Below are positions 40,044 to 58,776 of a DNA stretch of 64,000 nucleotides, piece by piece. A model generated the notes under the pieces. That model did no database searches. It worked only from the letters and a program-made list of their open reading frames with translations, and was not told the origin of the DNA. How positions within the stretch are numbered: position 1 is the first letter of the stretch; the number at the start of each line of letters is the position of its first letter. The translations under genes and the position numbers were made by a program. The stretch lies in assembly GCF_037076455.1 (NCBI RefSeq), contig NZ_AP028679.1, positions 1,999,501 to 2,063,500 on the forward strand, written 5' to 3'. Source of the DNA: Desulfoferula mesophila (GTDB taxonomy: Bacteria; Desulfobacterota; Desulfarculia; Desulfarculales; Desulfarculaceae).

Positions 40044-40816
40044 AGGACCAGGACAAACCCACCGTGCTCTTGGAGTACCACCTCAAAAAGCTGAAGCTGC
40101 CCACCATTCTCCGGGAATACGCGGCCATGGCCAAGGTCTGCAGCCAAGACCGCTCCGATTACATGACCTACCTGCTGCGCCTGACCGAGCGGGAGCTTCT
40201 GGACCGCGAGAAGCGGGCAGCCGAAAGGCGCATCAAGCAAGCCGCCTTTCCGGTGATCAAGACCATGGACACCTTTGATTTCAAGGCACAGCCCTCCATC
40301 AATCAGCAGCTGGTCAGGGAGCTGATGAGGGGCGAGTACATCGCCAAAAAGGAAAACGTGCTCCTGATCGGAAACTCCGGCACCGGCAAGACCCAGCTGG
40401 CCAGCGCCATGGCCTTTGCGGCCTGCGCCCAGGGAAGCAAGGTGAAATTCTACAGCGCCACCGCCCTGGTCACAGAGCTCATGGAATGCCGCGAGGAAAG
40501 ACGTCTGCAACGCCTGCAGAAACAGCTCCAGCGCCTACACCTGCTGGTCATCGATGAACTGGGCTATGTGCCCTTCTCCAAGATAGGCGCTCAAATGCTA
40601 TTCGAGGTGGTGGGTAGGGCATATGAACAACAAAGCCTCATGATCACCACCAATCTCCCTTTCCAGCAATGGACGGAGGTCTTCGGCTCCGAAAGACTCA
40701 CCGGTGCACTGCTGGACAGACTGACCCATAGGTGCCACATCATCGAGGCCAATGGAGAAAGCTACCGGCTCCGCCAAGCCAAAAGACGATCCCAGGCAAA
40801 GCCCAAAACCAACTAA
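40040..40816 (+). CDS. istB: IS21-family helper ATPase IstB, second copy
   Basis: 258 aa with Walker A GNSGTGKT and Walker B LLVIDELGYV. The only difference I see from the first copy is Gln instead of His after Walker A (C-to-G at 40396). Intact frame, but its istA partner is truncated. Confidence 0.9.
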   Translation: MKDQDKPTVLLEYHLKKLKLPTILREYAAMAKVCSQDRSDYMTYLLRLTERELLDREKRAAERRIKQAAFPVIKTMDTFDFKAQPSINQQLVRELMRGEYIAKKENVLLIGNSGTGKTQLASAMAFAACAQGSKVKFYSATALVTELMECREERRLQRLQKQLQRLHLLVIDELGYVPFSKIGAQMLFEVVGRAYEQQSLMITTNLPFQQWTEVFGSERLTGALLDRLTHRCHIIEANGESYRLRQAKRRSQAKPKTN

Positions 40817-42309: not shown

Positions 42310-44259
42310 TCAGGCCCGGTTCATGCCTTGCTTGCCGGCAAGGTTCCTCTTCAGCTTAAGTGGGCCAAAGCGAGAGATGAAGTACAGCCCCACCAATATG
42401 CCCACTCCAACCAAATCTGTGGGCAAGTGGGGCCACAGGAACAAGAAAGCCGTGAAGAAAATTAGACCCCTATACAGCCAAGGCAGCTTGCCGAACCCAT
42501 AAAAATGCCCCTCCAGACTTCCGGCCAGTAGCATGCAGCCGATCAGGGCAGAGATCACTGCGATGGTAACGTCTCCGGTAGTGCCGTCTAGGATCATGGC
42601 GGGATTCAGCACGAATAGGAAGGGCACAATGTACTTGGCCGAGCCCAGGCGCATGGATAAAAAGCCGGTCTTCATGGGGTCCGAGCCAGCTATGGCCGCG
42701 GCGGTAATGGAACCCAGGGCAACTGGCGGGGTTATGTAGGAAAGGCAACCCCAGTAGAGCACGAAAAGATGAGCTCCCATTTCGTTGAGCCCCACGCCGA
42801 CCAGCGCTGGAACCAGCACGATGGCCAGGAACACATAGCATGCAGTCACGGTCATGCCGATGCCCAGCACGAAGCTGGTAAGCGCGCCGAAGATCAGCAG
42901 CAACGCCACGTTGCCCCCGGCGTATAGCACCAGCTCACGGCTAAAGGAGTTTGCAACACCGGTGCAGGATAGGGCCCCGATGATCAGGCCCACGCCTGCC
43001 AGAATGCCGGTGATCTGGGCCAGTAGGCGGCCAGAGTCCACCAAAAAGGCGATAAAGCCGCTCAAGGTCAGACGTGTTTCACGGCGCAGCATGGAGCAGC
43101 CGAACAGGAAGATCATTACGAAGAAGGGCGCCCAAGCCTCCGTGCGCATATAAAAAAGTATGACCACCAGCATGATGATGGTGCCCAGGAAGAACCACCC
43201 TTTGCGCAGTGTCTCGCCTATGCGGGGGAGTTGGTCCCGGGGTATGCCGCCCATGTTGTGACCCAAGGCGTGCAGGTCCACCTGCAACAGCAGGGTGAAG
43301 TAATACAAGAGGGCCGGGAAAAAGGCCGCCAGCATTACCGCAGCGTAGGGCACGTTCAAGAATGAGGCGATCAAGAATCCCGCTGCGCCCATTACTGGGG
43401 GCATGATGGAACCGCCGGTGGATGAGCAGGCCTCAACCGAGGCTGCCCAAACGGGGCTGTATCCAGTCTTCTTCATGGCCGGTATGGTCATGGAGCCTGT
43501 GGTGACCACGTTGGAAATGACGCTGCCACTGAGGCTGGCCATGAAGGCGCTGGAAATGACCGACACCTTGGCTGCGCCACCCCGGCTATGACCCATCAGG
43601 GACATGGCGAAGTCCATGAAGAACTTGCCGCCGCCGGTGGCGACCAAGGCCACGCCGAAGATGATGAAACCGATGAGCAGGTTGCCCACGACCCGGGTGG
43701 GGATGCCGATGATACTTTCCACGCCCATGGCATGGTAGCGCACGGTCTCCAAAAGGCTCAATTCGTTGCCCCACAGGAAGCCGGGCATGTAACCTGCGAA
43801 CAGGGGATATACGGAGAAACCCAAGCATATCCAGAACAGGGAGCCGCCTCCTGCGCGACGTACTCCTTCCAGGGCCAAAAGGCAAAGCACGCCGCTGGCG
43901 AGGGTGGGCAGGTTGGGGGCCGCGTATTCCCATCCTTTAGTTAGGATGTTGTAGGCATTCGCCCCAAGGTACAGGTTGATGGCAACGCTTAAAAAGAACA
44001 GGCCCCAGTCGTACCACATGACCTTTGCGTTTCCCGCCTTACTGCCAGGAAAAAGCAAAAAGACCAGGGATAGGTAGGTGGCCAGGATGTAATAATAATA
44101 GGCGCTGCCAATGGGCATGAAGCCACCTAATTTTAGGTGGAAAATCTGGTTGATGCACAGCAAGGTGCCCAGCACGGATAGGACGGTGGCCAAAAAGTAA
44201 ACGACCTTTGAAGACCTGACCCGCATCGGTTTAATGCTTTCGCGCAGCACATCGGACAT
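42310..44259 (-). CDS. TAXI-type TRAP transporter fused permease (4TM/12TM)
   Basis: A 649-aa membrane protein joining a DctQ-like 4-helix N-terminus and a DctM-like 12-helix C-terminus, the form used with TAXI binding proteins. Family stretches include SGSVISNVVTTGSMTIPAMKK and EACSSTGGSIMPPVMGAAGF. It follows the binding-protein gene and a strong hairpin on the minus strand. Imports an unidentified small acid. Confidence 0.92.
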   Translation of the reverse strand: MSDVLRESIKPMRVRSSKVVYFLATVLSVLGTLLCINQIFHLKLGGFMPIGSAYYYYILATYLSLVFLLFPGSKAGNAKVMWYDWGLFFLSVAINLYLGANAYNILTKGWEYAAPNLPTLASGVLCLLALEGVRRAGGGSLFWICLGFSVYPLFAGYMPGFLWGNELSLLETVRYHAMGVESIIGIPTRVVGNLLIGFIIFGVALVATGGGKFFMDFAMSLMGHSRGGAAKVSVISSAFMASLSGSVISNVVTTGSMTIPAMKKTGYSPVWAASVEACSSTGGSIMPPVMGAAGFLIASFLNVPYAAVMLAAFFPALLYYFTLLLQVDLHALGHNMGGIPRDQLPRIGETLRKGWFFLGTIIMLVVILFYMRTEAWAPFFVMIFLFGCSMLRRETRLTLSGFIAFLVDSGRLLAQITGILAGVGLIIGALSCTGVANSFSRELVLYAGGNVALLLIFGALTSFVLGIGMTVTACYVFLAIVLVPALVGVGLNEMGAHLFVLYWGCLSYITPPVALGSITAAAIAGSDPMKTGFLSMRLGSAKYIVPFLFVLNPAMILDGTTGDVTIAVISALIGCMLLAGSLEGHFYGFGKLPWLYRGLIFFTAFLFLWPHLPTDLVGVGILVGLYFISRFGPLKLKRNLAGKQGMNRA

Positions 44260-44369: not shown

Positions 44370-45524
44370 TTAGTCAGCCAGAGCTTCAGCCCTAACTTTG
44401 AGCCAAAACTCCTCAAACTGCTTTTCCTTGATCTTTTTGGCAGTTTTTTCCTCCAGGGCCTTTTCCCAAGCGGCCTGGAGCTTCTTCATGTGAGCGATGC
44501 GCGCATCGTTCCAGGCTTGGGCTTCGGCGGTCCACACGCCCTTTTCCTTGAGGTAGCGAATGGCACCCTCGTGGAAGGGGGCGTCTGCGGGAGGCTTGCC
44601 AGACTTTTTGATGTTCCACAAGGGCATGACCTTATGAGCGCCCTTGTAAAGGTCGAAAGCCTCATCCATAGCCTTGGTCATGTTGTAGACCCAATTAGCA
44701 TCCTTGTTGGCGTATACGGTAATCATGGGGTAGCGGTACTCGGCCAGCCACACAGGTTTTTCCGGGGAGATGCCTGCGCCGATGGTTTCCTGGGCCGGGG
44801 CCAGGAAGGGAGCGACCTTGTTCATGCGCTTCCAGGCGGCCTTGTCGTCGGGGGGGAAGGGAATCCAGTAAAGGCCGCGAGCAGAAGTCTCCAACTCGTA
44901 CATGATAGAAGCCGAGGCGACGGTCACCGAAGCGTCGGTCTTGCCCTCGATGAGCGCCTTCAGGGAAGCAGCGTAGCCGGAGAATTCTACCTTTTTCACG
45001 TCCTTCCAGGTCAGGCCCGCGAAAGCCAGGAAGGCATCCATTTTAACGTTGAGGGTGGGGGCTCCGGGTATGTATGATACCCGCTTGCCTTTGAGATCCT
45101 TAAAAGTCTTGATGCCCGAGTCCTTGGTGGTGGCCAAGGCGATGGTGGCCGGGTGGGCTAGGATCACACGAAGGTCTTGGGGGCCCCACTCCACGGTAGC
45201 AAAGTCGTAAAGACCCTCGGATGCGAAATACACCTCATTGGCTAAGAAGCCGCAGGCCACCCGGTTGGCGGTCAACGGCATAAGGCGACCGATGGAGGTG
45301 CCAGAAGGCAGCAGGCGGATACGCATGCCGAACTTCTTGCTGAAGGCATCGGCGATTGCCGATGCCTGCATGTAGCCCGAAGAACCGATATCGTAGCAAC
45401 TCCAGACCATGGTTTTAGGCAAATCCACCTTGCTACCCGCCAAGGCGGCAGGTGCGAGGGTCAGGGTTAGCGCCAAAAACGCGCCCAAGAAAAATAAAAT
45501 CTTATTTTTGACTGAGTTTCTCAT
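44370..45524 (-). CDS. TAXI-family TRAP transporter solute-binding protein
   Basis: A 384-aa exported protein. ATG at 45524 has an AGGAGGAAAA ribosome site and yields a good signal peptide (MRNSVKNKILFFLGAF, then ALAGSK). TAXI features are the N-terminal WSCYDIGSSGYMQASAIADA and later DLKGKRVSYIPGAPT. The open frame to 45545 only adds the upstream MNQEEKI. It is the first gene of the TAXI operon. Confidence 0.9.
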   Translation of the reverse strand: MRNSVKNKILFFLGAFLALTLTLAPAALAGSKVDLPKTMVWSCYDIGSSGYMQASAIADAFSKKFGMRIRLLPSGTSIGRLMPLTANRVACGFLANEVYFASEGLYDFATVEWGPQDLRVILAHPATIALATTKDSGIKTFKDLKGKRVSYIPGAPTLNVKMDAFLAFAGLTWKDVKKVEFSGYAASLKALIEGKTDASVTVASASIMYELETSARGLYWIPFPPDDKAAWKRMNKVAPFLAPAQETIGAGISPEKPVWLAEYRYPMITVYANKDANWVYNMTKAMDEAFDLYKGAHKVMPLWNIKKSGKPPADAPFHEGAIRYLKEKGVWTAEAQAWNDARIAHMKKLQAAWEKALEEKTAKKIKEKQFEEFWLKVRAEALAD

Positions 45525-45858
45525 GATCTTTTCCTCCTGATTCATGAAAACAAATTAACGACCTACTCCCCTCTGGGGGTCAGTCTAGCCCGGGGGTGAT
45601 AACCGAATTGAAGATGTTGATGAGCAGATAATTAGTGAGTTGAAAAATCTGACAGGCGCATTGGCGATAAGCGTCGCCAGGGACAGCATGGGCGGGGCAG
45701 TTTTATCTCCTGGGCGGGCGTAGAAGAAGTGAACCATGCTCAGCGAAAGGCTGACTAACGCATGACTAGACTTTTGAAAACTGGCCCTCAAAATTTTCCC
45801 TCTATTCATATAGGGTAAAAAGGGAAGAAAGGCCAATCAGGCTCTCAATGTTGTGTCT
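45525..45858. other. Intergenic region upstream of the TAXI operon
   Basis: 334 bases with no gene I can support; an 83-codon minus frame at 45585-45836 has no recognisable features. It should contain the promoter of the TAXI operon and, as IclR is transcribed towards it, the end of that transcript. Confidence 0.4.
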
Positions 45859-46635
45859 CTAAGCAGGAATTACCGGATAGGATCCTTCGTACCCCAGTCC
45901 CTGAGAAATTATTTTTCCCGTTTTCAGTAGTTTGTCCAACGCATTATCAACGGTCTTTTGCAACCCTTTGTCGCTGATGTTAAGCGACAACGCCACCGAA
46001 GCTACCACTTGGCCCTCATGGTTGAGCAGGGGGACTCCGATAGAATACAAATCCAGAGAAAATTCTCCGTCGGATATCGCGTAGCCACGTTCCCTGGTGA
46101 CCTTTAGATCCTTTAGGATTCCGTTCTTGTTAATCACTGTGTTGGGGGTCACTTTGAACAGGTTCATCTTGTGCAGTAGTTCTTTGGCTTTCTCGATGGG
46201 CAGGGCCGCCAAGAGTACCTTGCCCATGGTGGTGCAATGGGCGGGTACTCGTGAGCCCACATACACGGCGAATGGATAAAAACGGGTACGCTCCTTGCGG
46301 AAGATCACCAATACCTCATCCCCATCCAAAACACCCATGCTCACGCTGCGTTCTAGATTGCTGGATAAATCCTCAAGGTAGGGGCGGGCGATGCTGAATA
46401 CACCCTCGCTGTTTAGAAACTGGAAGGCTAGGCTGAGCACCTTGTTGCCTAGCATATAGCGTTTGCCTGCGAGAATGCGCACGTATCCCAGTTCCATCAG
46501 GGTGTAGAGAAAACGCTGTACGGTAGTCTTGTTAGTTTCCAGACGTTCGGCCATCTGAGTTAGGGAAAGAGGCTCGGTAGAACTGCCCAGAAGTTCCAAA
46601 ATGGCAATTCCCTTACCCACTGACTTGACGAACAT
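45859..46635 (-). CDS. IclR-family transcriptional regulator
   Basis: A 258-aa regulator (262 aa from the GTG at 46647). The N-terminal winged helix (KSVGKGIAILELLG, LTQMAERLETNKTTVQRFLYTLMELGY) is followed by the IclR effector domain (CTTMGKVLLAALP and GEFSLDLYSIGVPLLN). IclR proteins sense small organic acids. It is divergent from the acyl-CoA dehydrogenase at 46799 and upstream of the TAXI genes on its own strand, so it may control both. The 150-base gap to 46799 is A+T-rich and contains AACTTG/CAAGTT flanking the A+T block. Confidence 0.9.
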   Translation of the reverse strand: MFVKSVGKGIAILELLGSSTEPLSLTQMAERLETNKTTVQRFLYTLMELGYVRILAGKRYMLGNKVLSLAFQFLNSEGVFSIARPYLEDLSSNLERSVSMGVLDGDEVLVIFRKERTRFYPFAVYVGSRVPAHCTTMGKVLLAALPIEKAKELLHKMNLFKVTPNTVINKNGILKDLKVTRERGYAISDGEFSLDLYSIGVPLLNHEGQVVASVALSLNISDKGLQKTVDNALDKLLKTGKIISQGLGYEGSYPVIPA

Positions 46636-46798
46636 TCTGTCACGCAATGCGATACCTCGTATTAACTTGCGTTATTTTAAAATTTAATCTAATTTAAAGT
46701 CAAGTTCCTTTTTGGCCACAGACAAACCTCGTTTAATTGGTGGCCGATGTGGGTGGCTGTAGGAATGCATTTCGAAAAAAGTAGGAGGAGGTATTTCA

Positions 46799-47974
46799 AT
46801 GGAATCCATTTTCCTGACAGAAAAGGAGCAGGCCTACGCTCTCGAGGCCAGAGAGTTTTTTAAGCTTGAAGCCCGCTCTCATGTTTTGGCTATGGACCGC
46901 GATAATAAGTATCCCTTTGAATTGCTAAAGAAAATGGGCGAAAAGGGCTATATTGGCGTACGTTTTCCTGCCAAGTACGGCGGTGGCGGATTGGACATGA
47001 TGCATGAGGCCCTGGTCAACGAGGAGACCGCGGCCCAATCTTACGCACTGGCCTGCGCCCGCAGCGTGCCCCACCACTGCGCCTTTATCATCGCCAACTA
47101 CGGTAGCGAAGAGCAGAAGCGCAAGTATCTACCCGGCATCTTTACTGCCGACATCCTCACCGCGGAGTGCATAACAGAGCCCACCGGCGGTTCGGACGCG
47201 GTCCGCATGAAAACTAAGGCTGAGCTCAAGGGCGACAAGTGGGTCATCAATGGCGAGAAGCGCTTCCAAGCTTCTGGCGCGGTGGCTGACCTGTTTGTGG
47301 TGTTCGCCATGACCGAGCATGACGTACACCCCAGCAAGGGCATGAGTGTCTTCGCGGTGGAGAAGGATGCGCCGGGCATCGTGGCCATGGAGGAGTTCGA
47401 CACGTTGGGCTGGAGAGGCCTGCGCATCGTCTCGGAACTGATCTTCGATGGCACCGAGATTCCCAAGGAAAATCTCATCGGCGAACGGGGGCAAGGCTTC
47501 CCCATCCTCATGGACATGCTCAACAGTGAGCGTATTCTGGTAGCTAGCGGTCTGCTTGGCACCGCTCGCACATGCCTGGAGATAGCCACCGCTTACACCA
47601 TGGAGCGCGAGGCCTTCCACCGGCCCATACGCAATTTTGAGGGTGTAAGCTTCAAGGTGGCGGAGATGGCCACCCGCCTGGAGGCGGCCAGCCTGCTTCG
47701 CTTCAAGGCAGCGCGCATGCTGGACATGGGACAGGATGTGACCAAGGTAGCGGCCATGGCCAAGGGTTTTGCGGCTGAAAATTCCTATTGGGTGGCCAAT
47801 GAAGCCCTGCAGGTCATGGGTGGTATCGGATACACTACTAAGCACGACATAGAGCGGCACTTCCGCGACATTCGGGGTGGCATGGTAGCGGTGGGCACCA
47901 ATGAGATTATGAAGCTGGTGGTGCAGCGGGAACACTACCTAGATTTCGCCAAGGACAAGGAAAAGGTTGGCTAG
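46799..47974 (+). CDS. Acyl-CoA dehydrogenase, isovaleryl/long-chain type active site
   Basis: A 391-aa FAD enzyme. ECITEPTGGSD and MGGIGYTTKHDIERHFRD are the standard blocks. The canonical catalytic Glu position reads VAVGTNE (Val), but LNSERILVA gives Glu244 in the helix-G position used by isovaleryl- and long-chain dehydrogenases. GGAGGAGG ribosome site before the ATG. Overlap with or close spacing to the lipoate-ligase-like gene suggests co-expression. Confidence 0.9.
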   Translation: MESIFLTEKEQAYALEAREFFKLEARSHVLAMDRDNKYPFELLKKMGEKGYIGVRFPAKYGGGGLDMMHEALVNEETAAQSYALACARSVPHHCAFIIANYGSEEQKRKYLPGIFTADILTAECITEPTGGSDAVRMKTKAELKGDKWVINGEKRFQASGAVADLFVVFAMTEHDVHPSKGMSVFAVEKDAPGIVAMEEFDTLGWRGLRIVSELIFDGTEIPKENLIGERGQGFPILMDMLNSERILVASGLLGTARTCLEIATAYTMEREAFHRPIRNFEGVSFKVAEMATRLEAASLLRFKAARMLDMGQDVTKVAAMAKGFAAENSYWVANEALQVMGGIGYTTKHDIERHFRDIRGGMVAVGTNEIMKLVVQREHYLDFAKDKEKVG

Positions 47975-47984
47975 GGGACGGGAT

Positions 47985-49079
47985 ATGGCCCATCTGCGCC
48001 TTTTGACCACCGAATACACCTATGCCGAGTTGTCCACCAGCATTTCGCCGGCCATCGAGAAATACTTGGAGGAGCAACGGTCCCCCAACACCCTGGTGGT
48101 AAACTTTTTCCGGGCCAACAGCATAACCATCGGGGTGCTGGAGGACCCCGAAAAATCCCTGAACCTGGATTTCTGCCGAGAGCACGGCATAGAAGTGCGC
48201 CGCCGGCAGAATCCGGGCGGTGCGGTGTTCGGCACCCAGGGCTCGGTGATGACCTGCCTCTATCTTGACCTGGGCCAGGACTGGGTGCCGTTTAAGAGCA
48301 TCCGAGAGGCATTCCCTTATTTTATCGAGCGCATGGCCGCGGTGATCAGCGAGCAGTTTGGCCTAAAGGCAAGCTACCGGCCTGTGAACGACATAGAGGT
48401 CGGTGGACGCAAGCTGGTGGCCACTTCGGCCCGCCTGGAAGCTGAAATCTTGACCCTCCGTAGCGTGATCAATGTGTTCCCGGTGGACCGCGAACTGATC
48501 GCCGGAGCCATCATAGCGCGGCCCGAGAAGTTCGCTGACAAGGTCCACAAGGATGGCGGCGCCCGCTTCACCTGTTTTCAGGACGAGCTGGGCCGGGCTT
48601 TACAACGGTCGGAGATGCACGAGCTGGCGGTAGCCACCATGCAGAAAGTTTTCGGCCAGGAGGTCATCTTGGAGCGAGGCGCGCTGACCACCGAGGAGCA
48701 GCGTTTTTCTCATGACTATCAGGACCTCTACTGCTCGGATGAATGGTACTTCGCCAACAGCGAACGAATTCGCTTCGCCGGTGCCGATCCAAGCGCCAGC
48801 CGGGCCGAGGCCTATCACAAGGCACCAGCCGGGCTTATGGGGCTGGCCCTGCTGGGGCTGCAGGGTAAGGTGCACGACGTGATCCTGCTAGCCGACTTCC
48901 ATCCCAGTCCCTACTCTGTGATGGGCCGCCTGGAAGACGCCCTGCGCGGTCAGCCCCTGAAGCTGGAGGCCCTGATGGCCCAGGTGGAAACAGTGTACAA
49001 TGCCCCGGGAGTGGAGATACCCGGTACCGAGCTTAGCGACTTCGCTACCTTGCTGGACAAGGGGCTGAAGCAGCTTTGA
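47985..49079 (+). CDS. Lipoate-protein ligase A-like protein (1)
   Basis: A 364-aa two-domain LplA-type protein. The lipoyl-AMP loop RRRQNPGGAVF near residue 69 and NDIEVGGRKLVATSARLE near 132 (with the catalytic Lys) correspond to RRxxGGGxV and GxKISGxAxR of LplA, with substitutions. The C-terminal accessory domain is present (GKVHDVILLADFHPSPYS). LplA attaches lipoate or octanoate to E2 or GcvH domains, but no such target is in the window. ATG 47985 preferred over TTG 47967. A homologue is at 50034. Confidence 0.82.
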   Translation: MAHLRLLTTEYTYAELSTSISPAIEKYLEEQRSPNTLVVNFFRANSITIGVLEDPEKSLNLDFCREHGIEVRRRQNPGGAVFGTQGSVMTCLYLDLGQDWVPFKSIREAFPYFIERMAAVISEQFGLKASYRPVNDIEVGGRKLVATSARLEAEILTLRSVINVFPVDRELIAGAIIARPEKFADKVHKDGGARFTCFQDELGRALQRSEMHELAVATMQKVFGQEVILERGALTTEEQRFSHDYQDLYCSDEWYFANSERIRFAGADPSASRAEAYHKAPAGLMGLALLGLQGKVHDVILLADFHPSPYSVMGRLEDALRGQPLKLEALMAQVETVYNAPGVEIPGTELSDFATLLDKGLKQL

Positions 49080-49110
49080 CAAGGCCGGCTATAACCGGTG
49101 GCTTTAAGGC

Positions 49111-49509
49111 ATGCTTTCCGATGAGATCAAATCGCATATCGTCTCCCCCCGCAACCAGGGAGTGATGCCCGGGGCCCACGGGGTGGGTGAGGTGCTAGGC
49201 CCGGTCTGCGGGGACCAACTAGTTGTTTATTTGCACTTCAATGGTGGGCGCATCAAACGGGCCAGCTTCACTACCCACGGCTGTTGGGCCGCAGTGGCCA
49301 TGGCATCTTGGATAACCGAGATAGTCAAAGGGCTTGCTCCCCCCGAGGCCCTTGAAGTGGACGCCGAGGCACTGGCTCGTGAGCAGGCGGGACTGCCCGA
49401 AGATAAATGGCCCTGCGCCCGCCTTGTGTCCTTGGCCTTGCACAGGGCGGTGCGTGATTGGCAACGTAGACAACAAGTAGGCGATCCGAAAGAAAACGGT
49501 GTTGCTTGA
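49111..49509 (+). CDS. IscU/NifU-like iron-sulfur scaffold protein
   Basis: A 132-aa protein with all three scaffold cysteines: Cys33 in the motif CGD, Cys58 in THGCWA and Cys102 in WPCARL, plus Asp35. IscU proteins build [2Fe-2S]/[4Fe-4S] clusters and hand them to acceptors. No iscS or hscA is nearby. It follows the lipoate-ligase-like gene by 31 bases. Since lipoyl synthases consume an iron-sulfur cluster, a link to lipoylation is plausible but unproven. Confidence 0.8.
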   Translation: MLSDEIKSHIVSPRNQGVMPGAHGVGEVLGPVCGDQLVVYLHFNGGRIKRASFTTHGCWAAVAMASWITEIVKGLAPPEALEVDAEALAREQAGLPEDKWPCARLVSLALHRAVRDWQRRQQVGDPKENGVA

Positions 49510-49526
49510 GTTAAAAATAATAAAAA

Positions 49527-49556
49527 GGCTCTCGCCAGCGGGGAGTGGCAGGAGCC
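49527..49556 (-). terminator. Terminator after the cupin gene, between converging genes
   Basis: GGCTCTCGCCA (49527-49537) pairs with TGGCAGGAGCC (49546-49556) apart from two central mismatches. On the minus strand it is followed by TTTTTATTATTTTT, a good intrinsic terminator for the cupin operon. It may also end plus-strand transcripts from iscU. Confidence 0.75.
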
Positions 49557-49574
49557 CAAACCGCAATCAATCTA

Positions 49575-49970
49575 TCAAACGATAGGTACGTATTCCCCAC
49601 TCTGCACTATTGCCACCACAGTGAGAGGTCCGTCAATACGCCTGTAACGGTAAGTATGTTTCACACCCGCAGGGATGAACACGGAGCAGGGCGTAGTAGC
49701 AGTGTAGGTCTCGTCTTCGATCTCTATTTCGATTTCTGCATCGTCCTTTTTGCTTATAAACAGGTAGGCCTCGCTCTGGTCGTGGTGATGTTTCATTATG
49801 ATGGGCTCAGACTGATGAATTTTGTTGTGGATGCCTCCAGCGATGAAGAAGTTCGCACCGGGAACCAACTCGCCGTCCATCAAAATCTGATATTTGCCCT
49901 TGGCGTGTGCCGCAAACTCATCGATGATCTTGGGTTCAGTCACTATGTACTTGGAATATTTGCCTGCCAT
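49575..49970 (-). CDS. Cupin-domain protein
   Basis: A 131-aa single-cupin protein. Motif 1 is KHHHDQSEAYLF (H-x-H-x3-E type metal ligands) and motif 2 is PAGVKHTYRY. Small cupins of this kind act as isomerases, dioxygenases or binding proteins; nothing here fixes the activity. Last gene of the minus-strand run PaaK-like, crotonase, LplA-like, cupin. AAGGAGG ribosome site before the ATG. Confidence 0.8.
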   Translation of the reverse strand: MAGKYSKYIVTEPKIIDEFAAHAKGKYQILMDGELVPGANFFIAGGIHNKIHQSEPIIMKHHHDQSEAYLFISKKDDAEIEIEIEDETYTATTPCSVFIPAGVKHTYRYRRIDGPLTVVAIVQSGEYVPIV

Positions 49971-50033
49971 GTTTGTTAACCTCCTTTTCCCCGTAATTGG
50001 GTGCCGACTGTGGCCACCCTGCGGCCCAGTGAA

Positions 50034-51140
50034 TTACTGTGGGCCAAATTCCTTGCCAAAGGCCTTGGCAAATGCGGTCATGAAGTCATCTATTTCAATG
50101 CCAGCCATCTCCACATCCTCGCGGGCGTATATGCGCTCCAGTTCCTGCCGTACAACCGCCAAGTCACATGGCTTACCCCGCAGTGCATGCTCAATATCCC
50201 GGGTCACTCGGTAAGGCGAGGGATGGAAGTCACCGGTTACGATCAGGTCATCCATTCGGCCCTCCCGGCTCAGCAGGGTCACCCGGATCAGGCCGGCCAC
50301 CGCTTTTTGGTTGCCTTCGCTTTTGATTGCATAGGGGTGGGCACCCTTAAAACGGATGCGCTCGGAGTTGGCAAAGAACCACTCAGGCGAATTGTAGGTC
50401 TTTTGATATTCTTTGAGGTATTGCTCCTCTTCAGGGGTAAGTTGACCAGGGACAAGCTCTAGGTCGTCTCCGAACATCTTGGCTATGGTAAGCCGGGAGA
50501 GTTGCTCCATATCCTCTCCCGTGATCTCGCGGTTCAGCTCATTCTCAAGGCTGGTATAACGGGCTCCAACATCCTTAATGGCTTTGTCCTTCACTTTCTC
50601 CGGGTTGGTGATAATGGCTTTGCTGAGCACTGCGCGATCGGTGTTGACCACATTGATTAGTAACCGTAAGGTCAGAATCCCATTTTCAAGGCGAGCCGAA
50701 CTGGGTACAAGCTTGCGTCCTTCGACCTCTATGTCGTTAAGGGGGCGGTAACGGGCTGGTATGTGCCACAATTCCTCCACAGCCTCGGCCATGGCGGTAA
50801 GTGACACCTGGAAGGCGTCCTTGATGTTGGTCATGGGCACGCCTAGGGCGCGTGGATTCAAGTAGAGGCAGAGGAAAGCGCCGCCCTTAGGCCCAAAAAC
50901 AGCCCCGCCGGTGTTCTGGCGGCGGCGCACCACGATGCCCGCCTGTTCACAGAACGCCAGGTCAATGGCCTTTTCCGGGTCGTCTAAATAACCCGATGTG
51001 ATGCTGTCGGTACTAAAAACATTTAGTAGCACTGTGTTCGATGCCACTCCATACTCCAGCCCTTTTTCCACGGCGGGCGAAATACTGGTGGAAAAGTCGG
51101 CATAGGAATCATTACATTTGATGAACCGCAACTTCTTCAC
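50034..51140 (-). CDS. Lipoate-protein ligase A-like protein (2)
   Basis: A 368-aa paralogue of the protein at 47985, with RRRQNTGGAVF and NDIEVEGRKLVPSSARLE and the same C-terminal domain (DDLIVTGDFHPSPYRVT). Both proteins keep an N-terminal CNDSYADFSTSISPAVEKGL-like segment not usual in E. coli LplA. It lies in a different operon from paralogue 1, on the other strand, between a crotonase and a cupin. Confidence 0.82.
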   Translation of the reverse strand: MKKLRFIKCNDSYADFSTSISPAVEKGLEYGVASNTVLLNVFSTDSITSGYLDDPEKAIDLAFCEQAGIVVRRRQNTGGAVFGPKGGAFLCLYLNPRALGVPMTNIKDAFQVSLTAMAEAVEELWHIPARYRPLNDIEVEGRKLVPSSARLENGILTLRLLINVVNTDRAVLSKAIITNPEKVKDKAIKDVGARYTSLENELNREITGEDMEQLSRLTIAKMFGDDLELVPGQLTPEEEQYLKEYQKTYNSPEWFFANSERIRFKGAHPYAIKSEGNQKAVAGLIRVTLLSREGRMDDLIVTGDFHPSPYRVTRDIEHALRGKPCDLAVVRQELERIYAREDVEMAGIEIDDFMTAFAKAFGKEFGPQ

Positions 51141-51214: not shown

Positions 51215-52015
51215 TTATTCGCCTTTGAACTCAGGTTTGCGTTTTTCCAAAAATGCTTCACGGCCTTCCTTGTGATCGCCGCTGGTCAGGGCAATCGCCT
51301 GTAACCCAGCCTCCAGGTCTAGATAGCTGCTGAGGTTCATAGGCCAGCAATTCATGGCCGCCTTGACCATGGACATGGCTTTGGTGGCTCCCTTTGACAG
51401 CTTTTGTGCCCAGGCCCAAGCCTGCTCGTCCAACTCAGCGTCTGGGGCAATGCGGTTGATCATGCCCATATCAAACGCTTCTTTTGCCGAAATCATGCCG
51501 CCTTCCATCATGAATTGTTTGCTGCGGGCCATGCCCACCCTGAGGGGCAGGAAGAAATATTGTCCCCAATCGGGGGTCAGCCCAACCTTTATGAAAGCGA
51601 AAACGAACTTAGCCTGTTCGGCAGCAATGACCAGGTCTGAAGCCAGAACCAAGCTGACCGCCGCACCGGCAGCCACGCCCTGTACCGAAGCGATGATCGG
51701 CTTGGGTAGATCCACCATGGCCTTGATAAGGCGCTGACCGTATTTCATGCGGTCGTATGCGGCCATGGAGCCCGGAATGCCTTCCATGGAACGAAGGTCA
51801 CCGCCAAAGCTGAAGTTATTCCCCGCGCCAGTAAGGATTACCGTTTTTACCGAACTGTCGTCCTGCAACTTGTCGAACACATCGATCAGTTCAGGCCGGA
51901 CCTCCAAGTTAATGGCGTTATTCTTTTCAGGCAGGTTGATGATAACCTTTAGCACGGCGTCCCTTTGCTCGAACAGGAGCCGATCGTAACCGCGAGCTTC
52001 CAACTTGTCGGACAT
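51215..52015 (-). CDS. Crotonase-family protein, PaaG-like (isomerase-type active site)
   Basis: A 266-aa crotonase. The oxyanion segments FSFGGDLRSM and QGVAAGAAVSLVLASDL are present. Both hydratase glutamates are absent (AAVSL and FAFIKVG where hydratases have E), but Asp149 in VGLTPDWGQ matches the catalytic acid of PaaG-type enoyl-CoA isomerases. I therefore expect double-bond isomerisation rather than hydration. ATG at 52015 has a GGAAGGAG site; the open frame up to 52165 is not supported by homology. Confidence 0.82.
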   Translation of the reverse strand: MSDKLEARGYDRLLFEQRDAVLKVIINLPEKNNAINLEVRPELIDVFDKLQDDSSVKTVILTGAGNNFSFGGDLRSMEGIPGSMAAYDRMKYGQRLIKAMVDLPKPIIASVQGVAAGAAVSLVLASDLVIAAEQAKFVFAFIKVGLTPDWGQYFFLPLRVGMARSKQFMMEGGMISAKEAFDMGMINRIAPDAELDEQAWAWAQKLSKGATKAMSMVKAAMNCWPMNLSSYLDLEAGLQAIALTSGDHKEGREAFLEKRKPEFKGE

Positions 52016-52273
52016 TAACTGATCTACTCCTTCCAGCGGGAAGTACCGTTCGACATAGTTGTCCCGCGGTGTTGGCTTCGTTTGCGGGGGGAGCGCCGCC
52101 GGGGCGGTTAAAATTTCACTTGATGCCCCGGCAGCAGCACCCGCTATACAGAATCTTAAATACAACTATATATAAAATTATATTTTGCAAGGTAAAAGTC
52201 ACTTATTTAAGCCATGCGACGTCTGCGCCTGAAAGCACATCAATTTGCTCTGCTGCGCTCGCCAGGCATGTTG
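52016..52273. promoter_or_regulatory. A+T-rich gap upstream of the crotonase gene
   Basis: 258 bases between the PaaK-like and crotonase genes, both on the minus strand. Bases 52145-52195 are very A+T-rich, resembling the blocks in front of the GntR genes, and could contain a promoter for the crotonase-LplA-cupin group. Confidence 0.4.
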
Positions 52274-53476
52274 TCAGAAGGAGCGCCCCTTGCGCTTGTC
52301 CACTACACCAGGGCCCTGTTCCAGTTTATCCACTGTCTCGATTGTGTTGAATTTAAGCAGCGTTTCGCTTTTGAGGTGATTTGCGAGCCGCTCAAGTTCT
52401 CCATCGTCGGCCAGAGAACCCTCCACGGTCAGGCGCAGTTGATCCACCCCTTGCACCGAATCTACTTCTACCCTGTAGTTAAGCGATAGTGAAGGGTAGC
52501 TGCGAAGGATCGTGGCCACCTGGCTGGGCCAGAATTTTATACCCTTGATCTTAAGCATCTCATCGGTGCGGCCAATCACGCTTTGGGGCATGGTCAGCTC
52601 GCGGCCACATGCGCATTGGCGCCGCTCCAGTACCGTAAGGTCGCCAGTTCGGTAGCGCAGCAGGGGCGCGGCCTGTTTGTGAAGGTGAGTGAGTACGAGC
52701 TCGCCCTTGTCGCCTATGGGTAAAGGCTCTCCGCTGTCCGGGTCAACCACCTCAGCATAGACAAAGTCGTCCATCAAGTGCAGGCCATTGTTGTGACGGC
52801 AGGAACGGGCGATGGGCATGCACAGGGCCATGCTGTAGGAGTCGATTATGGTGATTTCCCGGTCAAATGCAGCCCGCACCTTTTCTGGGTAGCCCTGCAC
52901 CGAAGTGAAGGGCTCTCCACCCACAAAAAGGGTGTGAACAGAAGGGATACCCTGTTCGGCCAGCTTCATGGCAAATGTTGGGTTGGAGGCCAATACGCTT
53001 ATTTGGAGATCGTTGATTATCTTAACCGCTCGCTCCGATTCGCCGGGACCTAGGGGAATAACCTTGGCGCCGTAATATTCAAGCTGCCCCTGATAGAATA
53101 GGCCGGCGATGAACAGGTGGTATCCGAAGGTCACCGCCACCGAGTCCTGGGGGGACAAGCCGGCCGCTTCCAGGGAACGGGCGCAGACCCGGTGCATAGT
53201 CTCCAAATCCTGGTTGGTGTGATACACCGGGTAAAGCTCCTGACCTGAGGGAGAGAAGTTTACCCGGGTTACCTCGGGGGTGAAAAGGGAGCACTGGGCG
53301 GGTGGCTTTTTGAGCTCTGACTGGAAGTCTTTGGCCGTGGTAAAGGGCAGGCGGGCAAAGTCCTCCAGGGAATTAACAGCACACGGATCCACCGATGCAT
53401 CAGCAAAACGCTTGCGGTAATAATCTATCTTTTCGAGATGATTGAGTTGAGCCTGCAGTTGCTCCAAGATCTTCAT
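52274..53476 (-). CDS. PaaK-related protein with a degenerate adenylation site
   Basis: A 400-aa protein of the phenylacetate-CoA ligase family by overall pattern: LLRYRTGDLTVLE, the cysteine pair CACG and IGRTDEMLKIKGIKFWPSQV at the C-terminus. The phosphate loop SSGTTGKP is replaced by SPSGQELYP, and the YGxSE motif by YSMAL. These changes remove residues that bind ATP, so it may be an inactive partner, a CoA-binding protein or a ligase with an unusual site. ATG 53476 has an AAGGAG ribosome site. First gene of the minus-strand group, divergent from GntR paralogue 3. Confidence 0.75.
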   Translation of the reverse strand: MKILEQLQAQLNHLEKIDYYRKRFADASVDPCAVNSLEDFARLPFTTAKDFQSELKKPPAQCSLFTPEVTRVNFSPSGQELYPVYHTNQDLETMHRVCARSLEAAGLSPQDSVAVTFGYHLFIAGLFYQGQLEYYGAKVIPLGPGESERAVKIINDLQISVLASNPTFAMKLAEQGIPSVHTLFVGGEPFTSVQGYPEKVRAAFDREITIIDSYSMALCMPIARSCRHNNGLHLMDDFVYAEVVDPDSGEPLPIGDKGELVLTHLHKQAAPLLRYRTGDLTVLERRQCACGRELTMPQSVIGRTDEMLKIKGIKFWPSQVATILRSYPSLSLNYRVEVDSVQGVDQLRLTVEGSLADDGELERLANHLKSETLLKFNTIETVDKLEQGPGVVDKRKGRSF

Positions 53477-53849
53477 GGAGACTCCTTTTTCCACCATACT
53501 CAAACGCGGACAGTTTTCATATCGCCTTCACGCTGCCGGGTTCCCATAGCCGAGGCTGAGTCGAATGCATCCGCACGACACAATCAATAAAGTTACGCAT
53601 AGTGTTACATAAATGTGCAATGCGTGATCAATAATCCCCTTATTGGGAACTAAAAGTCAATCCTTTTCTGAAGAATCAGGGTGCGCCAGCTATGCCAACT
53701 GGTGTGGTGCACATAACCGGATAATATTCATAACCTATTGATTGACAATACCTTTGCTTGGTTTTCGAGCAAATCGCTGAGCTTAATTTCCCGAACAAAT
53801 TCAAAAAAAAATTAAAATTAAGATCATAATTGTGATACTAAAAATATAG
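53477..53849. other. Divergent control region between the PaaK-like gene and GntR paralogue 3
   Basis: 373 bases with no gene. Bases 53800-53845 are A+T-rich (runs of aattaaaatta), like the sequences in front of the other two paralogues. Expected to hold promoters in both directions and the regulator's operator. Confidence 0.45.
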
Positions 53850-54611
53850 ATGGTAAGGACGGGAACAGTGGCAATTCAGCAGAGAAAAACCAAAAGCGGG
53901 GTCTCCAACAGACGGGGAGTGGCCATCGAAAATGCCTATACCCTGATCAAACACTTGATCTATTACAACCTCCTAGCCCCCGGACAAAAAATTATCTATG
54001 GGGACATCAGCCGTCGCCTGAATACCAGTACCACGCCAGTAATGCAGGCGCTCAACCGGCTGGAGGCCAGCGGCTTCGTGACCTACGTGCCTAACCAAGG
54101 CTACTTCGTGGGAGAGATCACCATGGACGAGACTTTGGAGTTGTTCGAAGCTCGCGAGGCAATGGAAACCTGCTTGATCCCGCGTATCATCGAAAAAATA
54201 ACCCGACATGACATTGAACAGATCAAGCAGGTATTTCGCCAGTACGGTGGTGACGCCGTAGGCGGCCTTAACCGAAAGTTGATTATGGTGGACGCAAAGT
54301 TTCACTTGAGGCTGGCCAAGTATGCCGACAACCGGGTCATTTTTAACATTCTGCAGGACGTCTTTGAAAAGCTGTACCTGAAGTACCGCCCCGAATACCT
54401 CAATCCCATGGAAGTGCGCGAGGTGACCTCAGAACGCCGCCGCATTCTTGGCGCTTTGGGTAGAGGAGACGCCCAGACGGTCGTTGAAACTAACCATAAG
54501 CATATCGCCGCCAGTCTGGAGCGCATAACCTCCGCTCTGCGCCAACGTGAAGAAATTGGCCTTTATCCCTTTTCTGGTGCCCCGAGGACCGGCAGGAATA
54601 AAGCGATTTAA
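53850..54611 (+). CDS. GntR-family (FCD) transcriptional regulator, paralogue 3
   Basis: A 253-aa regulator. The winged helix (LAPGQKIIYGDISRRLN, then TPVMQALNRLEASGFVTYVP) matches paralogues 1 and 2, and the FCD motif is VDAKFHLRLAKYADN. A GTG at 53868 is an alternative start. It separates the minus-strand PaaK-like group from the plus-strand beta-oxidation and methylmalonyl-CoA block and may regulate both. Confidence 0.9.
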   Translation: MVRTGTVAIQQRKTKSGVSNRRGVAIENAYTLIKHLIYYNLLAPGQKIIYGDISRRLNTSTTPVMQALNRLEASGFVTYVPNQGYFVGEITMDETLELFEAREAMETCLIPRIIEKITRHDIEQIKQVFRQYGGDAVGGLNRKLIMVDAKFHLRLAKYADNRVIFNILQDVFEKLYLKYRPEYLNPMEVREVTSERRRILGALGRGDAQTVVETNHKHIAASLERITSALRQREEIGLYPFSGAPRTGRNKAI

Positions 54612-54799: not shown

Positions 54800-55585
54800 A
54801 TGGATTACCAAAACATCATTTTCAAAGTGGAAGACAATATCGGCCAGCTGATCGTAAACCGGCCGGAAGCACGCAACGCGCTCAACCGGGCTGCCCGCTT
54901 GGAAATGGCAGACGTGTTGGCCAAGGTGCAGGCTGACCCTTCTATAAAGGTATTGGTGGTGTCCGGGGCCGGGGAAAAGGCTTTCGTGGCCGGCTCGGAT
55001 GTTAAGGAGTTGGCTCAGTACAGCCCGCTGGACATGGAGCACTTCATGGACACACTGGCTCAGGGTTTCTATTCGCGGTTTGAGCGTCTAGACCGCCCGG
55101 TGATCGCCATGATTGACGGGCTATGCCTGGGGGGAGGGCTTGAGTTTGCCCTGGCCTGCGACCTGCGCTTTGCCTCGGATCGCTCCCTGCTGGGTCTACC
55201 CGAGATACGTCTCGGCATCATGCCGGGGGGAGGAGGGACCCAGCGCCTACCGCGCTTAGTGGGCGTGGCTAAGACCAAGGAGCTTATCTTCACCGGCGAG
55301 TTTATCAAGGCCGATGAGGCTGAGCGCCTCGGCATCGTCAACCGCGTCTTTCCGGCCGAGGAACTGGAGGAGCAGGTTATGGCCGTGGCCAAGAAGATCA
55401 CGGCCAAAAGCAGCCTGGCTCTCAAGTGGGCCAAAAAAGCTATCAACGCCTCACAGGAGACCGGTCTGAGGGCTGGGCTGGACTACGAGGCCATGGTGGA
55501 ATGTCTTTTGTTCACCAGCGAAGACCGGCATGAGGGCATTAAGGCCCTATTCGAAAAACGCGAACCCAAGTTCCAGGGCAAGTGA
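54800..55585 (+). CDS. Enoyl-CoA hydratase (crotonase family)
   Basis: A 261-aa hydratase. Both catalytic glutamates are present: Glu115 in GGGLEFALACDL and Glu135 in LGLPEIRLGIMPG, so it should hydrate trans-2-enoyl-CoA to the 3(S)-hydroxyacyl-CoA. This contrasts with the crotonase at 51215. First gene of the long plus-strand operon; the acyl-CoA dehydrogenase follows after 60 bases. Confidence 0.9.
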   Translation: MDYQNIIFKVEDNIGQLIVNRPEARNALNRAARLEMADVLAKVQADPSIKVLVVSGAGEKAFVAGSDVKELAQYSPLDMEHFMDTLAQGFYSRFERLDRPVIAMIDGLCLGGGLEFALACDLRFASDRSLLGLPEIRLGIMPGGGGTQRLPRLVGVAKTKELIFTGEFIKADEAERLGIVNRVFPAEELEEQVMAVAKKITAKSSLALKWAKKAINASQETGLRAGLDYEAMVECLLFTSEDRHEGIKALFEKREPKFQGK

Positions 55586-55645
55586 CCTACTCTGGGCCTC
55601 TGGAATACTTTACATAGGTCTATTTAGCCAATAAGTGAGGTTGTG

Positions 55646-56797
55646 ATGCAGTACAACACTTCTGAGCTCACCGAGGAGCAAAGAATATTCCAGGATATGA
55701 TGACTGACTTCGCCGATGAGGTCCTTGCCCCCATGGTCGACGAGGCGGAAGAGACTGGCAATACCCCCCTGGAACTTTTCACCAAGATGGCCGAGATGGG
55801 CTTTTTGTGTCCCCGCTATCCGGAAGACCTGGGCGGCGGTGGTGCGGACAAGCTCACCGAGTGCATCATGATCGAGCAGGTCTGTCGGGTGGACGCGGGC
55901 TTCTGTGGGGCCATCGTGGCCCATAGCGGCCTGGGCACCATGCCCATCTTTCTGCATGGTTCCGACGAGCAGAAAGAGAAATACCTGATACCGGCAATCC
56001 AGGGCAAAAAAATCGCCGCTTTCGGTCTCACCGAACCCAACGTGGGCTCCGATGCCGCATCCATCCAAACCCGGGCGGTGCGAGACGGCGACGAGTACGT
56101 GATCAACGGCACCAAGATGTTTATCACCAACGCGACCATCTGCGATTACGTCATTGTGGCCGCCTACACCCAGCCTGACAAGCGGGGCTTGGGCATCAAC
56201 CTTTTCCTGGTGGATAAGGGCACCCCCGGCTTCACGGTCAGCAAAAAGCTGGACAAGGTGGGCAACCACGCCGCGGAGACCGGCGAGTTGGTGTTCGAGG
56301 ACTGCCGCGTCCCAGCCGAAAATCTCATCGGCGGCAAGGAGTGCGGCGGCTTCCAGCAGTTGGAATCCACCCTCATATCAGGGCGCATCACCTATGGCGC
56401 GCGCTGTCTGGGCACGGCGCAGTCCGCCTACGACCTGACCGTGGAGTACGCCAAGCAGCGGGTTCAGTTCGGCAAGCCCATCATTAAATTTCAGAACACC
56501 TCCTTTAAACTGGCCGAGATGGCTACCTACATTGATGTGATGCGCACCTACGTTTGGCGTGTGGCTCGTTTGTACGAGGCCGGGGCCAACGTAAAGAAGG
56601 AGTCTTCCATGGTCAAGCTGTTTTGCGCCGAACTGCTTCAGAATATCACCAACGCCGGCATGCAGATTCACGGCGGCTACGGCTACATGATGGAGTACCC
56701 CATACAGCGTCATTGGCGCGACGGCCGCCTGTACACGGTGACCGAGGGCACCTCCGAGGTGCAGCGCATAGTCATCTCCAAAGAGTGCGGATTCTAG
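55646..56797 (+). CDS. Acyl-CoA dehydrogenase, short/medium-chain type active site
   Basis: A 383-aa FAD enzyme. FGLTEPNVGSD and HGGYGYMMEYPIQRHWRD blocks are intact and the canonical catalytic base is Glu367 in VTEGTSEVQR. This is the butyryl-/short-chain arrangement, different from the enzymes at 122 and 46799. Lies between the hydratase and carboxyltransferase genes; nine bases separate it from the latter. Confidence 0.92.
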   Translation: MQYNTSELTEEQRIFQDMMTDFADEVLAPMVDEAEETGNTPLELFTKMAEMGFLCPRYPEDLGGGGADKLTECIMIEQVCRVDAGFCGAIVAHSGLGTMPIFLHGSDEQKEKYLIPAIQGKKIAAFGLTEPNVGSDAASIQTRAVRDGDEYVINGTKMFITNATICDYVIVAAYTQPDKRGLGINLFLVDKGTPGFTVSKKLDKVGNHAAETGELVFEDCRVPAENLIGGKECGGFQQLESTLISGRITYGARCLGTAQSAYDLTVEYAKQRVQFGKPIIKFQNTSFKLAEMATYIDVMRTYVWRVARLYEAGANVKKESSMVKLFCAELLQNITNAGMQIHGGYGYMMEYPIQRHWRDGRLYTVTEGTSEVQRIVISKECGF

Positions 56798-58345: not shown

Positions 58346-58377
58346 GAATATGATTGCCTTTAAAGGAGCTTGAAAAA

Positions 58378-58776
58378 ATGAGTAAGCGGATTCGGGTCCT
58401 GGCGGCCAAACCCGGCCTAGACGGTCACGACCGGGGCATAAAAGTGGTTTGCACCGGCCTGAAGGACGCTGGTATGGAGGTGATCTACACCGGCCTGCGC
58501 CAGACCCCGGAGGCCATCGTGTCCGCCGCCTTGCAAGAGGACGTGGACGTGATCGCCCTGAGCACCCTGTCCGGGGCGCATAACCAGCACTTGCCCCGAG
58601 TGGCCAAATTGCTCAAGGAAAAGGGGGCCTCCCACATCCTGCTAGTTGCCGGAGGCATCGTGCCTCCCAAGGACCGCGTCGTGCTGAAAGAGCAAGGAAT
58701 CTCCGAAATATTCGGACCCGGCGCCACCATGCCCCAGATTGTCAAATTTATCGAGGACAACCAGCCCCTGAGCTAA
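58378..58776 (+). CDS. Methylmalonyl-CoA mutase, B12-binding subunit
   Basis: A 132-aa cobalamin-binding domain. The lower-ligand motif D-x-H-x2-G is present in [14 protein letters not shown], and GGIVPPKDR lines the nucleotide loop. It combines with the catalytic subunit encoded 25 bases downstream; two-gene mutases like this are common in archaea and some bacteria. ATG 58378 has an AAAGGAG site. Confidence 0.92.

What the first reader, a model, noticed from the sequence alone, without database searches (positions are those of the whole stretch)
47985..51140. Two lipoate-ligase-like proteins and an IscU-like scaffold without any visible lipoylation target
Seen: two LplA-type paralogues with altered motifs (RRRQN(P/T)GGAVF instead of RRxxGGGxV), on opposite strands, one followed by a three-cysteine IscU-like gene. 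Known: LplA modifies E2, GcvH or, in sulfur oxidisers, LbpA; lipoyl synthase needs iron-sulfur cluster repair. No such target occurs here, and both genes sit with acyl-CoA genes. Inference: they may attach or remove another acyl group, or serve a CoA-linked process.
Basis: partly seen in the sequence, partly recalled or inferred. Interest (0 to 1): 0.5.

Follow-up and report, generated by a model that had tools for sequence, protein, structure and literature searches.

The report
Lipoate-ligase relatives repurposed for acid catabolism
Two genes that look like enzymes attaching the cofactor lipoate belong to a separate branch of that enzyme family that sits beside genes importing and breaking down organic acids, so they probably activate such an acid instead, although no activity has been measured.

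Summary
Observation confirmed. Window 47985-49079 (+, LPL-B) and 50034-51140 (-, LPL-A) encode two-domain LplA-fold proteins, 47% identical, with a remodelled lipoate loop; an IscU-like gene follows LPL-B. The genome has lipoylation elsewhere (LipB, two LipA, an Lpl with LipS1/LipS2, seven GCV_H matches), so "no target" holds only locally.

The pair belongs to a clade (33 of 33 rows, support 100/100) apart from sLpl(AB)-type and solved LplAs; 18 of 394 sampled genomes of the phylum have a member. Around 41 such genes (34 loci) no lipoylation gene was found within 8 kb, and 27 of 34 loci have acyl-CoA or carboxylate-transporter genes. Around 22 sLpl-type controls (21 loci), 21 genes have lipoylation genes nearby; 2 loci have an acyl-CoA gene.

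GGG of the lipoate loop is kept in 0 of 37 family rows but 26 of 26 others; the ATP-side lysine is kept in 37 of 37. In 22 of 22 A/B/D rows an Arg stands where ligases mostly have His or Gln. The PaaK-like protein beside LPL-A/C lacks the P-loop and C-terminal lysine.

Best reading: acyl-adenylate-forming enzymes recruited to activate an imported carboxylate, perhaps with that PaaK-like protein. Substrate and activity are untested.

The parts
47985..49079 (+). LPL-B: two-domain LplA-like protein, loop RRRQNPGGAVF, lysine in GRK
   Evidence: (pLDDT 91.3)
50034..51140 (-). LPL-A: two-domain LplA-like protein, loop RRRQNTGGAVF, K143, R159
   Evidence: (pLDDT 92.0)
49111..49509 (+). IscU/NifU_N-like protein with three Cys; follows LPL-B in 8 of 8 LPL-B loci examined
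49575..49970 (-). small cupin with HxHxxxE-type residues; beside LPL-A/C in 7 of 10 loci examined
46799..47974 (+). acyl-CoA dehydrogenase ACAD1; directly before LPL-B
51215..52165 (-). enoyl-CoA hydratase/isomerase ECH1
52274..53503 (-). PaaK-like protein without P-loop and without the C-terminal (A10) lysine
42310..44259 (-). TRAP transporter membrane protein (DctM)
44370..45545 (-). TAXI-type solute-binding protein (NMT1_3)
   Evidence: name TAXI recalled
45859..46647 (-). IclR-type regulator
53850..54611 (+). GntR/FCD regulator
54800..55585 (+). enoyl-CoA hydratase ECH2
55643..56797 (+). acyl-CoA dehydrogenase ACAD2
   Evidence: clusters with ACAD1 by BLASTP; not run against Pfam
56807..58345 (+). 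acyl-CoA carboxyltransferase
58354..58776 (+). B12-binding mutase subunit
58802..60451 (+). methylmalonyl-CoA mutase-type large subunit
61054..62460 (+). HMG-CoA-synthase-like protein with ChsH2-type OB domain (both Pfam matches just under cut-off)
62474..63661 (+). thiolase

Best explanation
LPL-A and LPL-B are members of a clade of LplA-fold proteins that has left lipoylation. Most likely each binds ATP and the carboxylate that the neighbouring transporter brings in (or an acid made from it), forms an acyl-adenylate with the conserved lysine, and passes the acyl group on: to CoA, or to a protein not yet known. For LPL-A (and LPL-C, which stands in its place in two other operons) the neighbouring PaaK-like protein, which lacks the two motifs used for adenylation, may do the transfer to CoA. 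Shown: fold, lysine, changed acyl pocket, clade, gene neighbourhood. Inferred: adenylation, the acid, the acceptor, the role of the PaaK-like and IscU-like proteins.
For: Fold: confident models of both proteins; LPL-A covers 321-323 residues of E. coli LplA structures at Z about 28. Lysine: 37 of 37 family rows; PMC7186572 (passages) gives this lysine a role in both half-reactions. Pocket: GGG of the lipoate loop kept in 0 of 37 family rows against 26 of 26 others; in 22 of 22 A/B/D rows Thr at Mhp position 47 and Arg at 154, where the other 26 rows have Q/I/L/C/S and H/Q/V/G. Clade: 33 family rows on one side of a branch, 100/100, in 100% of 200 bootstrap trees. Context: 0 of 41 genes with a lipoylation gene within 8 kb, against 21 of 22 controls; acyl-CoA or transporter genes at 27 of 34 loci against 2 of 21 (Fisher P 6e-7, rows not independent). 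LPL-A/B absent from 2 of 7 same-genus genomes (G001, G006), which also lack the HMGS gene. PaaK-like of the SPSG type: 6 of 6 genomes with it, of 394, have it on the same contig one or two genes from a family LPL.
Against: No activity, substrate or acceptor is known. The HMGS/thiolase part of the pathway usually works without LPL: of 40 stretches fetched around HMGS genes one (L084) held family LPLs. PaaK-like proteins without a P-loop also exist with no LPL beside them: L188 and L189 in this genome (nearby genes not examined, but the genome has only two family LPLs) and a 45% identical SPGP group in six genomes (one stretch only 3 kb). Six FadD-type ligases at C-, E- and other family loci (L061, L119 two, L124, L127, L132) keep a P-loop, so a split synthetase cannot be general. 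Seven of 34 loci show neither gene class (five are contigs under 5.6 kb). In C and some E rows the loop is so changed that binding may be lost.
Confidence: 0.45

Rival explanations
1. They are ordinary lipoate (or octanoate) ligases dedicated to one of the GcvH-type proteins encoded elsewhere in the genome, merely placed in a catabolic cluster.
For: Same fold and lysine; seven GCV_H matches exist. The specialised ligases of sulfur oxidisers were at first inactive on foreign targets and active only on their own (PMC6067878, passages).
Against: The genome already has LipB, two LipA and an Lpl beside LipS1/LipS2. No GcvH type was confined to genomes with the pair among six compared (with: G000, G002, G004, G011; without: G001, G006). 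None of 41 family genes has a lipoylation gene within 8 kb. Loop and tunnel residues that contact the lipoyl group are changed.
Confidence: 0.2
2. They have lost catalysis and act as acid-binding sensor, chaperone or structural subunits of the neighbouring enzymes or regulators.
For: GGG lost in 37 of 37 rows, the second Arg of RR lost in 6 of 37 (4 of 4 C rows, 2 of 11 E rows) and the loop shortened in 2 E rows; two diverged copies per cluster.
Against: The lysine is kept in 37 of 37 rows; N135, D136, D185 and K186 are invariant in the 21 rows of alignment A6. Binding without chemistry would not be expected to hold the ATP-side lysine so strictly.
Confidence: 0.2
3. They are acyltransferases or amidotransferases (LipM/LipL/LipB-like) that move an acyl group between CoA or protein carriers without ATP.
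For: Same superfamily; acyl-CoA genes nearby.
Against: No NCBIfam match to LipB or another octanoyl/lipoyl transferase up to E 0.1; the two-domain layout with the LplB-like part is that of ligases; no Cys is invariant apart from C64. The position of the transferase Cys is recalled, not mapped here.
Confidence: 0.1

Closest known systems
sLpl(AB) lipoate:protein ligase of the LipS1/LipS2 pathway (PMC10332631; abstract and sections 7, 9, 21 seen)
   Same: Two-domain LplA fold; the family and the sLpl-type rows fall on the same side of the tree against solved LplAs, weakly (93/74); many sLpl-type rows also lack the His of the loop.
   Different: sLpl-type rows keep RR and GGG in 22 of 22 and 21 of 22 control genes have a lipoylation gene within 8 kb; family: GGG 0 of 37, lipoylation genes 0 of 41.
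LplA/Lpl of E. coli, Mycoplasma hyopneumoniae (6JOM), Enterococcus and Listeria
   Same: Fold over both domains (Z 24.8-28.0 for 4tvy, 1x2g, 6jom, 5ij6, 8cri), lysine, ND motif.
   Different: 16-19% identity over the structure alignment with those five, 23% to E. coli LplA by BLASTP; lipoate loop and acyl tunnel changed.
Phenylacetate-CoA ligase PaaK (for the neighbour at 52274-53503)
   Same: Matches solved PaaK at E 1.7e-53; hinge region GRTDxM and the (R/K)YRTxD segment kept.
   Different: P-loop SSGTTGxP replaced by SPSGxxLxPVY and C-terminal EGK-type lysine by GP in 10 of 10 complete LPL-adjacent copies.
IscU/NifU_N scaffold (for 49111-49509)
   Same: Three Cys and CGD Asp in 8 of 8; closest NCBIfam model NifU_clost, 98.1 bits.
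   Different: Below every equivalog cut-off; the genome has a stronger NifU match elsewhere (167.5 bits) and two further NifU_N matches.

Membership tests
Lipoate-protein ligase (LplA / Lpl(AB)) | LplA catalytic fold with accessory C-terminal domain | tested here: met
   (fold search run on LPL-A only); LplB model 25.0 and 48.2 bits, under its cut-off of 65
Lipoate-protein ligase (LplA / Lpl(AB)) | Lysine that contacts the acyl carbonyl/AMP | tested here: met
   37 of 37 family rows; 25 of 26 other rows
Lipoate-protein ligase (LplA / Lpl(AB)) | Lipoate-binding loop RRxxGGG | tested here: not met
   GGG in 0 of 37 family rows against 26 of 26 others; RR in 31 of 37
Lipoate-protein ligase (LplA / Lpl(AB)) | Curated NCBIfam equivalog score (TIGR00545, 280 bits) | tested here: not met
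   65.4 and 78.5 bits; not decisive, the genome's own Lpl beside LipS1/LipS2 also misses it with 118.6
Lipoate-protein ligase (LplA / Lpl(AB)) | Lipoylation gene within 8 kb | tested here: not met
   0 of 41 family genes; 21 of 22 controls. Not a strict requirement: many true ligases stand alone (recalled)
Lipoate-protein ligase (LplA / Lpl(AB)) | Adenylation of lipoate or octanoate and transfer to a lipoyl domain | not testable with these tools
   needs enzyme assay
sLpl(AB) of the LipS1/LipS2 pathway | Groups with sLpl(AB)-type rows in a tree | tested here: not met
   family and sLpl-type rows are separate sides of a branch, family support 100/100 (55 of 63 rows used)
LipB/LipM/LipL transferases | Match to the transferase models and catalytic Cys | tested here: inconclusive
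   no such NCBIfam match up to E 0.1; Cys position not mapped
Phenylacetate-CoA ligase (neighbour) | P-loop and C-terminal (A10) lysine needed for adenylation | tested here: not met
   absent in 10 of 10 complete LPL-adjacent copies; both present in this genome's L183, L184 and L185. Roles of the motifs recalled
IscU/NifU_N | Three cluster-binding Cys | tested here: met
   8 of 8

The most novel reading that the evidence does not exclude
The LplA fold has radiated in Desulfobacterota into a family of carboxylate-activating enzymes for catabolism; with LPL-A/C the work of an acyl-CoA synthetase is split between two folds, the LplA-like protein making the acyl-adenylate from ATP and a polar or dicarboxylic acid held by Arg159, and a PaaK-like protein without P-loop and A10 lysine moving the acyl group to CoA.
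Probability: 0.15. Interest if true: 0.85.

Novelty: new variant of a known kind. Interest (0 to 1): 0.6.

Why it matters
Automatic annotation calls such proteins lipoate ligases, so a genome's lipoylation capacity is overcounted and the pathway that they really serve goes unseen. If they activate other acids, the LplA fold joins the enzymes of acid catabolism, and these anaerobes have a way of starting acid degradation that no current model covers. The consistent link to TRAP-type transporters gives a direct route to the substrates.

Tried and rejected
Is the pair bound to the HMGS/thiolase pathway? Forty stretches around HMGS genes were fetched; one (L084) held family LPLs. Rejected as an obligate link.

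A dedicated GcvH elsewhere? Counts in 15 genomes and a comparison of six genomes showed no GcvH type confined to genomes with the pair. One further GcvH stretch (L177, G005) was fetched and not used.

A split synthetase as a general rule? FadD-type ligases at six places keep a P-loop, and other P-loop-less PaaK-like proteins occur without an LPL beside them. Kept only as the novel reading for LPL-A/C. All 12 genomes of 394 with either P-loop-less group (SPSG or SPGP) are among the 18 with a family LPL, but six of them are of one family (f24).

Plasmids: two tblastn searches gave one weak match each, to records annotated lipoate-protein ligase. Range outside the phylum: the one scan of 84,980 species genomes with A/B/D-type patterns gave 15 loci, 14 of them at 44-78% identity, all MAGs titled Desulfarculus, Desulfarculaceae, Desulfobacteraceae, Deltaproteobacteria, Thermodesulfobacteriota or Proteobacteria, and one weak match (26%) in a Thermoplasmata archaeon. 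C- and E-types were not scanned outside the phylum.

BLASTP of E. coli LplA against LPL-A shifts the lysine segment by one residue, leaving the lysines unaligned; MAFFT and HMMER align them, and the Arg159 statement rests on those two.

Literature: searches of the held PMC library showed no paper on this group; only listings were seen except PMC10332631 (outline and sections 7, 9, 21), PMC6067878 and PMC7186572 (passages).

No fold search was run on the LPL-B model, and no model coordinates were available for a pocket analysis.
Full report
What is there. The window lies in a 4.48 Mb genome in one contig. Its relatives in named collections are Desulfarculus/Desulfarculaceae MAGs, so it is probably of that family (inference). 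At 47985-49079 (+) and 50034-51140 (-) are two LplA-like genes, called LPL-B and LPL-A here. Both match Pfam LplA-B_cat well, fall far under the NCBIfam lipoate ligase equivalog score and are 47% identical. An IscU-like gene follows LPL-B and a cupin gene lies between the two.

Structure. AlphaFold2 models are confident (mean pLDDT 92.0 and 91.3). LPL-A matches solved LplAs over both domains: Foldseek E 2.4e-21 to 6jom; Z 28.0, rmsd 3.0, 321 residues to 4tvy and Z 27.7, rmsd 3.2, 323 residues to 1x2g. LPL-B was not searched.

Lipoylation in this genome. Searches of the own genome gave five LplA/LipB-type matches (the two window genes, a LipB, an Lpl at 2079941 beside LipS1 and LipS2 genes, and an Lpl at 1943091 next to a GcvH gene), seven GCV_H matches, four Biotin_lipoyl matches and two LipA. 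The LipS1 and LipS2 matches (205.3 and 218.7 bits) stand far above other models but just under the NCBIfam cut-offs of 230 and 270.

A separate clade. Relatives were gathered from 98 genomes near the window, from one scan of 84,980 species and from 394 genomes of the phylum. In one search scores of 243 bits and more belong to 18 genomes; the next match has 193.6 bits. Family rows fall into A, B and D (44-78% identical to LPL-A), C (about 28-30%) and E (about 26-32%). A tree of 55 of the 63 aligned rows puts the 33 family rows on one side of a branch with support 100/100, in 100% of 200 bootstrap trees; the 18 sLpl-type and 4 solved rows are outside. Whether sLpl-type rows are the nearest outsiders is weakly supported (93/74). 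An earlier tree of 50 rows without E-types agrees (100/99).

Changed pocket. On the alignment of 63 rows the ATP-side lysine is kept in 37 of 37 family rows; GGG of the lipoate loop is kept in 0 of 37 but in 22 of 22 sLpl-type and 4 of 4 solved rows. In all 22 A/B/D rows position 47 (Mycoplasma numbering) is Thr and 154 is Arg. Among the other 26 rows position 154 is Q 18, H 4, V 3, G 1. PMC7186572 (passages) names T75, C90, A143 and Y152 as tunnel residues and 154 as the usually conserved His near the dithiolane. Arg159 of LPL-A is thus placed where the far end of the acid would be; that it binds a second carboxylate is inference. C and E rows have other residues there (G 8, A 4, R 2, T 1), so the Arg is not a family feature.

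Neighbourhood. In relatives of the genus and in L071 and L084 the order is conserved: ACAD1, LPL-B and IscU-like stand together in 8 of 8 LPL-B loci; LPL-A is near ECH1 and the PaaK-like gene; in L071 and L084 an LPL-C takes the place of LPL-A between cupin and PaaK-like. Further genes are TAXI/TRAP transporter, IclR and GntR regulators, mutase, carboxyltransferase, HMGS-like protein and thiolase. Two same-genus genomes (G001, G006) lack the pair and the HMGS gene; the other same-genus genomes with the pair in that sample (G002, G005) have both.

Controlled comparison. Within 8 kb of 41 family genes at 34 loci, BLASTP against reference proteins (E 1e-10) found lipoylation genes 0 times; of 22 sLpl-type control genes at 21 loci it found them 21 times. 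Acyl-CoA genes were found at 23 of 34 family loci and 2 of 21 control loci, transporters (references from the same locus not counted) at 18 and 0, either at 27 and 2 (Fisher P 6e-7 for either). Of the seven family loci with neither, five are contigs under 5.6 kb; the others are L128 (9 kb) and L133 (16 kb). Rows are not independent: the A/B cluster of one genus supplies six of the 34 loci (window, L051-L054 and, split over two contigs, L056/L057 make seven). C- and E-type loci give other contexts: TRAP genes (L129, L130, L134, L135, L137), aconitase X (L129), a periplasmic binding protein with ACAD and FadD (L127), PaaK-like (L126). Controls were the highest-scoring sLpl-type matches, not a random draw.

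The PaaK-like neighbour. It matches solved PaaK (E 1.7e-53), but SSGTTGxP is replaced by SPSGxxLxPVY and the C-terminal lysine by GP in 10 of 10 complete LPL-adjacent copies; PaaKs L183, L184 and L185 of this genome keep both. In 394 genomes this SPSG type occurs in six (G000, G002, G005, G107, G168, G407; G168 only a fragment that runs into a membrane protein), each time on the same contig near a family LPL. A related SPGP type (45-47%) occurs in six more, not near an LPL in the stretches read, though those genomes have family LPLs elsewhere. L188 and L189 of this genome also lack a P-loop. Family loci with FadD-type ligases have intact P-loops.

Mechanism. Kept fold and lysine, changed acid pocket, loss of link to lipoylation and gain of link to transport and acyl-CoA genes are best explained by acid activation for catabolism (0.45). 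The acid is unknown; mutase and carboxyltransferase point to propionate/succinate chemistry downstream (recalled pathway knowledge). The IscU-like protein may be LPL-B's partner, since the two are adjacent in 8 of 8 loci, but nothing shows its role.

Novelty. No paper on this group was seen in the held library. PMC10332631 annotated every detected ligase as Lpl (section 21) and does not set such a group apart in the sections seen.

Noticed in passing
own genome 2075992-2080588 (L062:12492-17088): An Lpl gene with a long C-terminal part lies beside LipS1, LipS2 and a geranylgeranyl-reductase-like gene, in a genome that also has LipB and two LipA: two lipoate assembly routes side by side.
   Followed up: partly
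own genome 1941390-1943987 (L063:13391-15988): A GcvH-type gene is followed by an iron-sulfur/CCG-like protein and a third Lpl type whose ATP-side lysine is Arg in this genome (row S_L005) but Lys in its two relatives L040 and L050.
   Followed up: no
own genome, GCV_H matches: Seven GcvH-type matches in one genome, one of them (L014) weak and inside a longer protein; relatives have 3 to 9.
   Followed up: partly
L129:1875-4250: Aconitase X gene directly beside an E-type LplA-like gene and a TRAP transporter.
   Followed up: no
L128, L134, L135: E-type LplA-like genes near a Memo-like protein, a radical SAM protein and a 425-residue protein without Pfam match (Pfam run on the L135 copies only).
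   Followed up: no
window 35166-37408 and 38724-40816: Two copies of an IS21-like gene pair (Mu-transposase-type protein and IstB) upstream of the cluster (the second pair by BLASTP clustering with the first).
   Followed up: no
own genome 2454556-2455713 and 1909566-1910747 (L188, L189): PaaK-like proteins whose P-loop is replaced by PG-type sequences.
   Followed up: no
L126:1266-2486: A PaaK-like reading frame runs into a TRAP-like membrane protein, probably an assembly or sequence joint.
   Followed up: no
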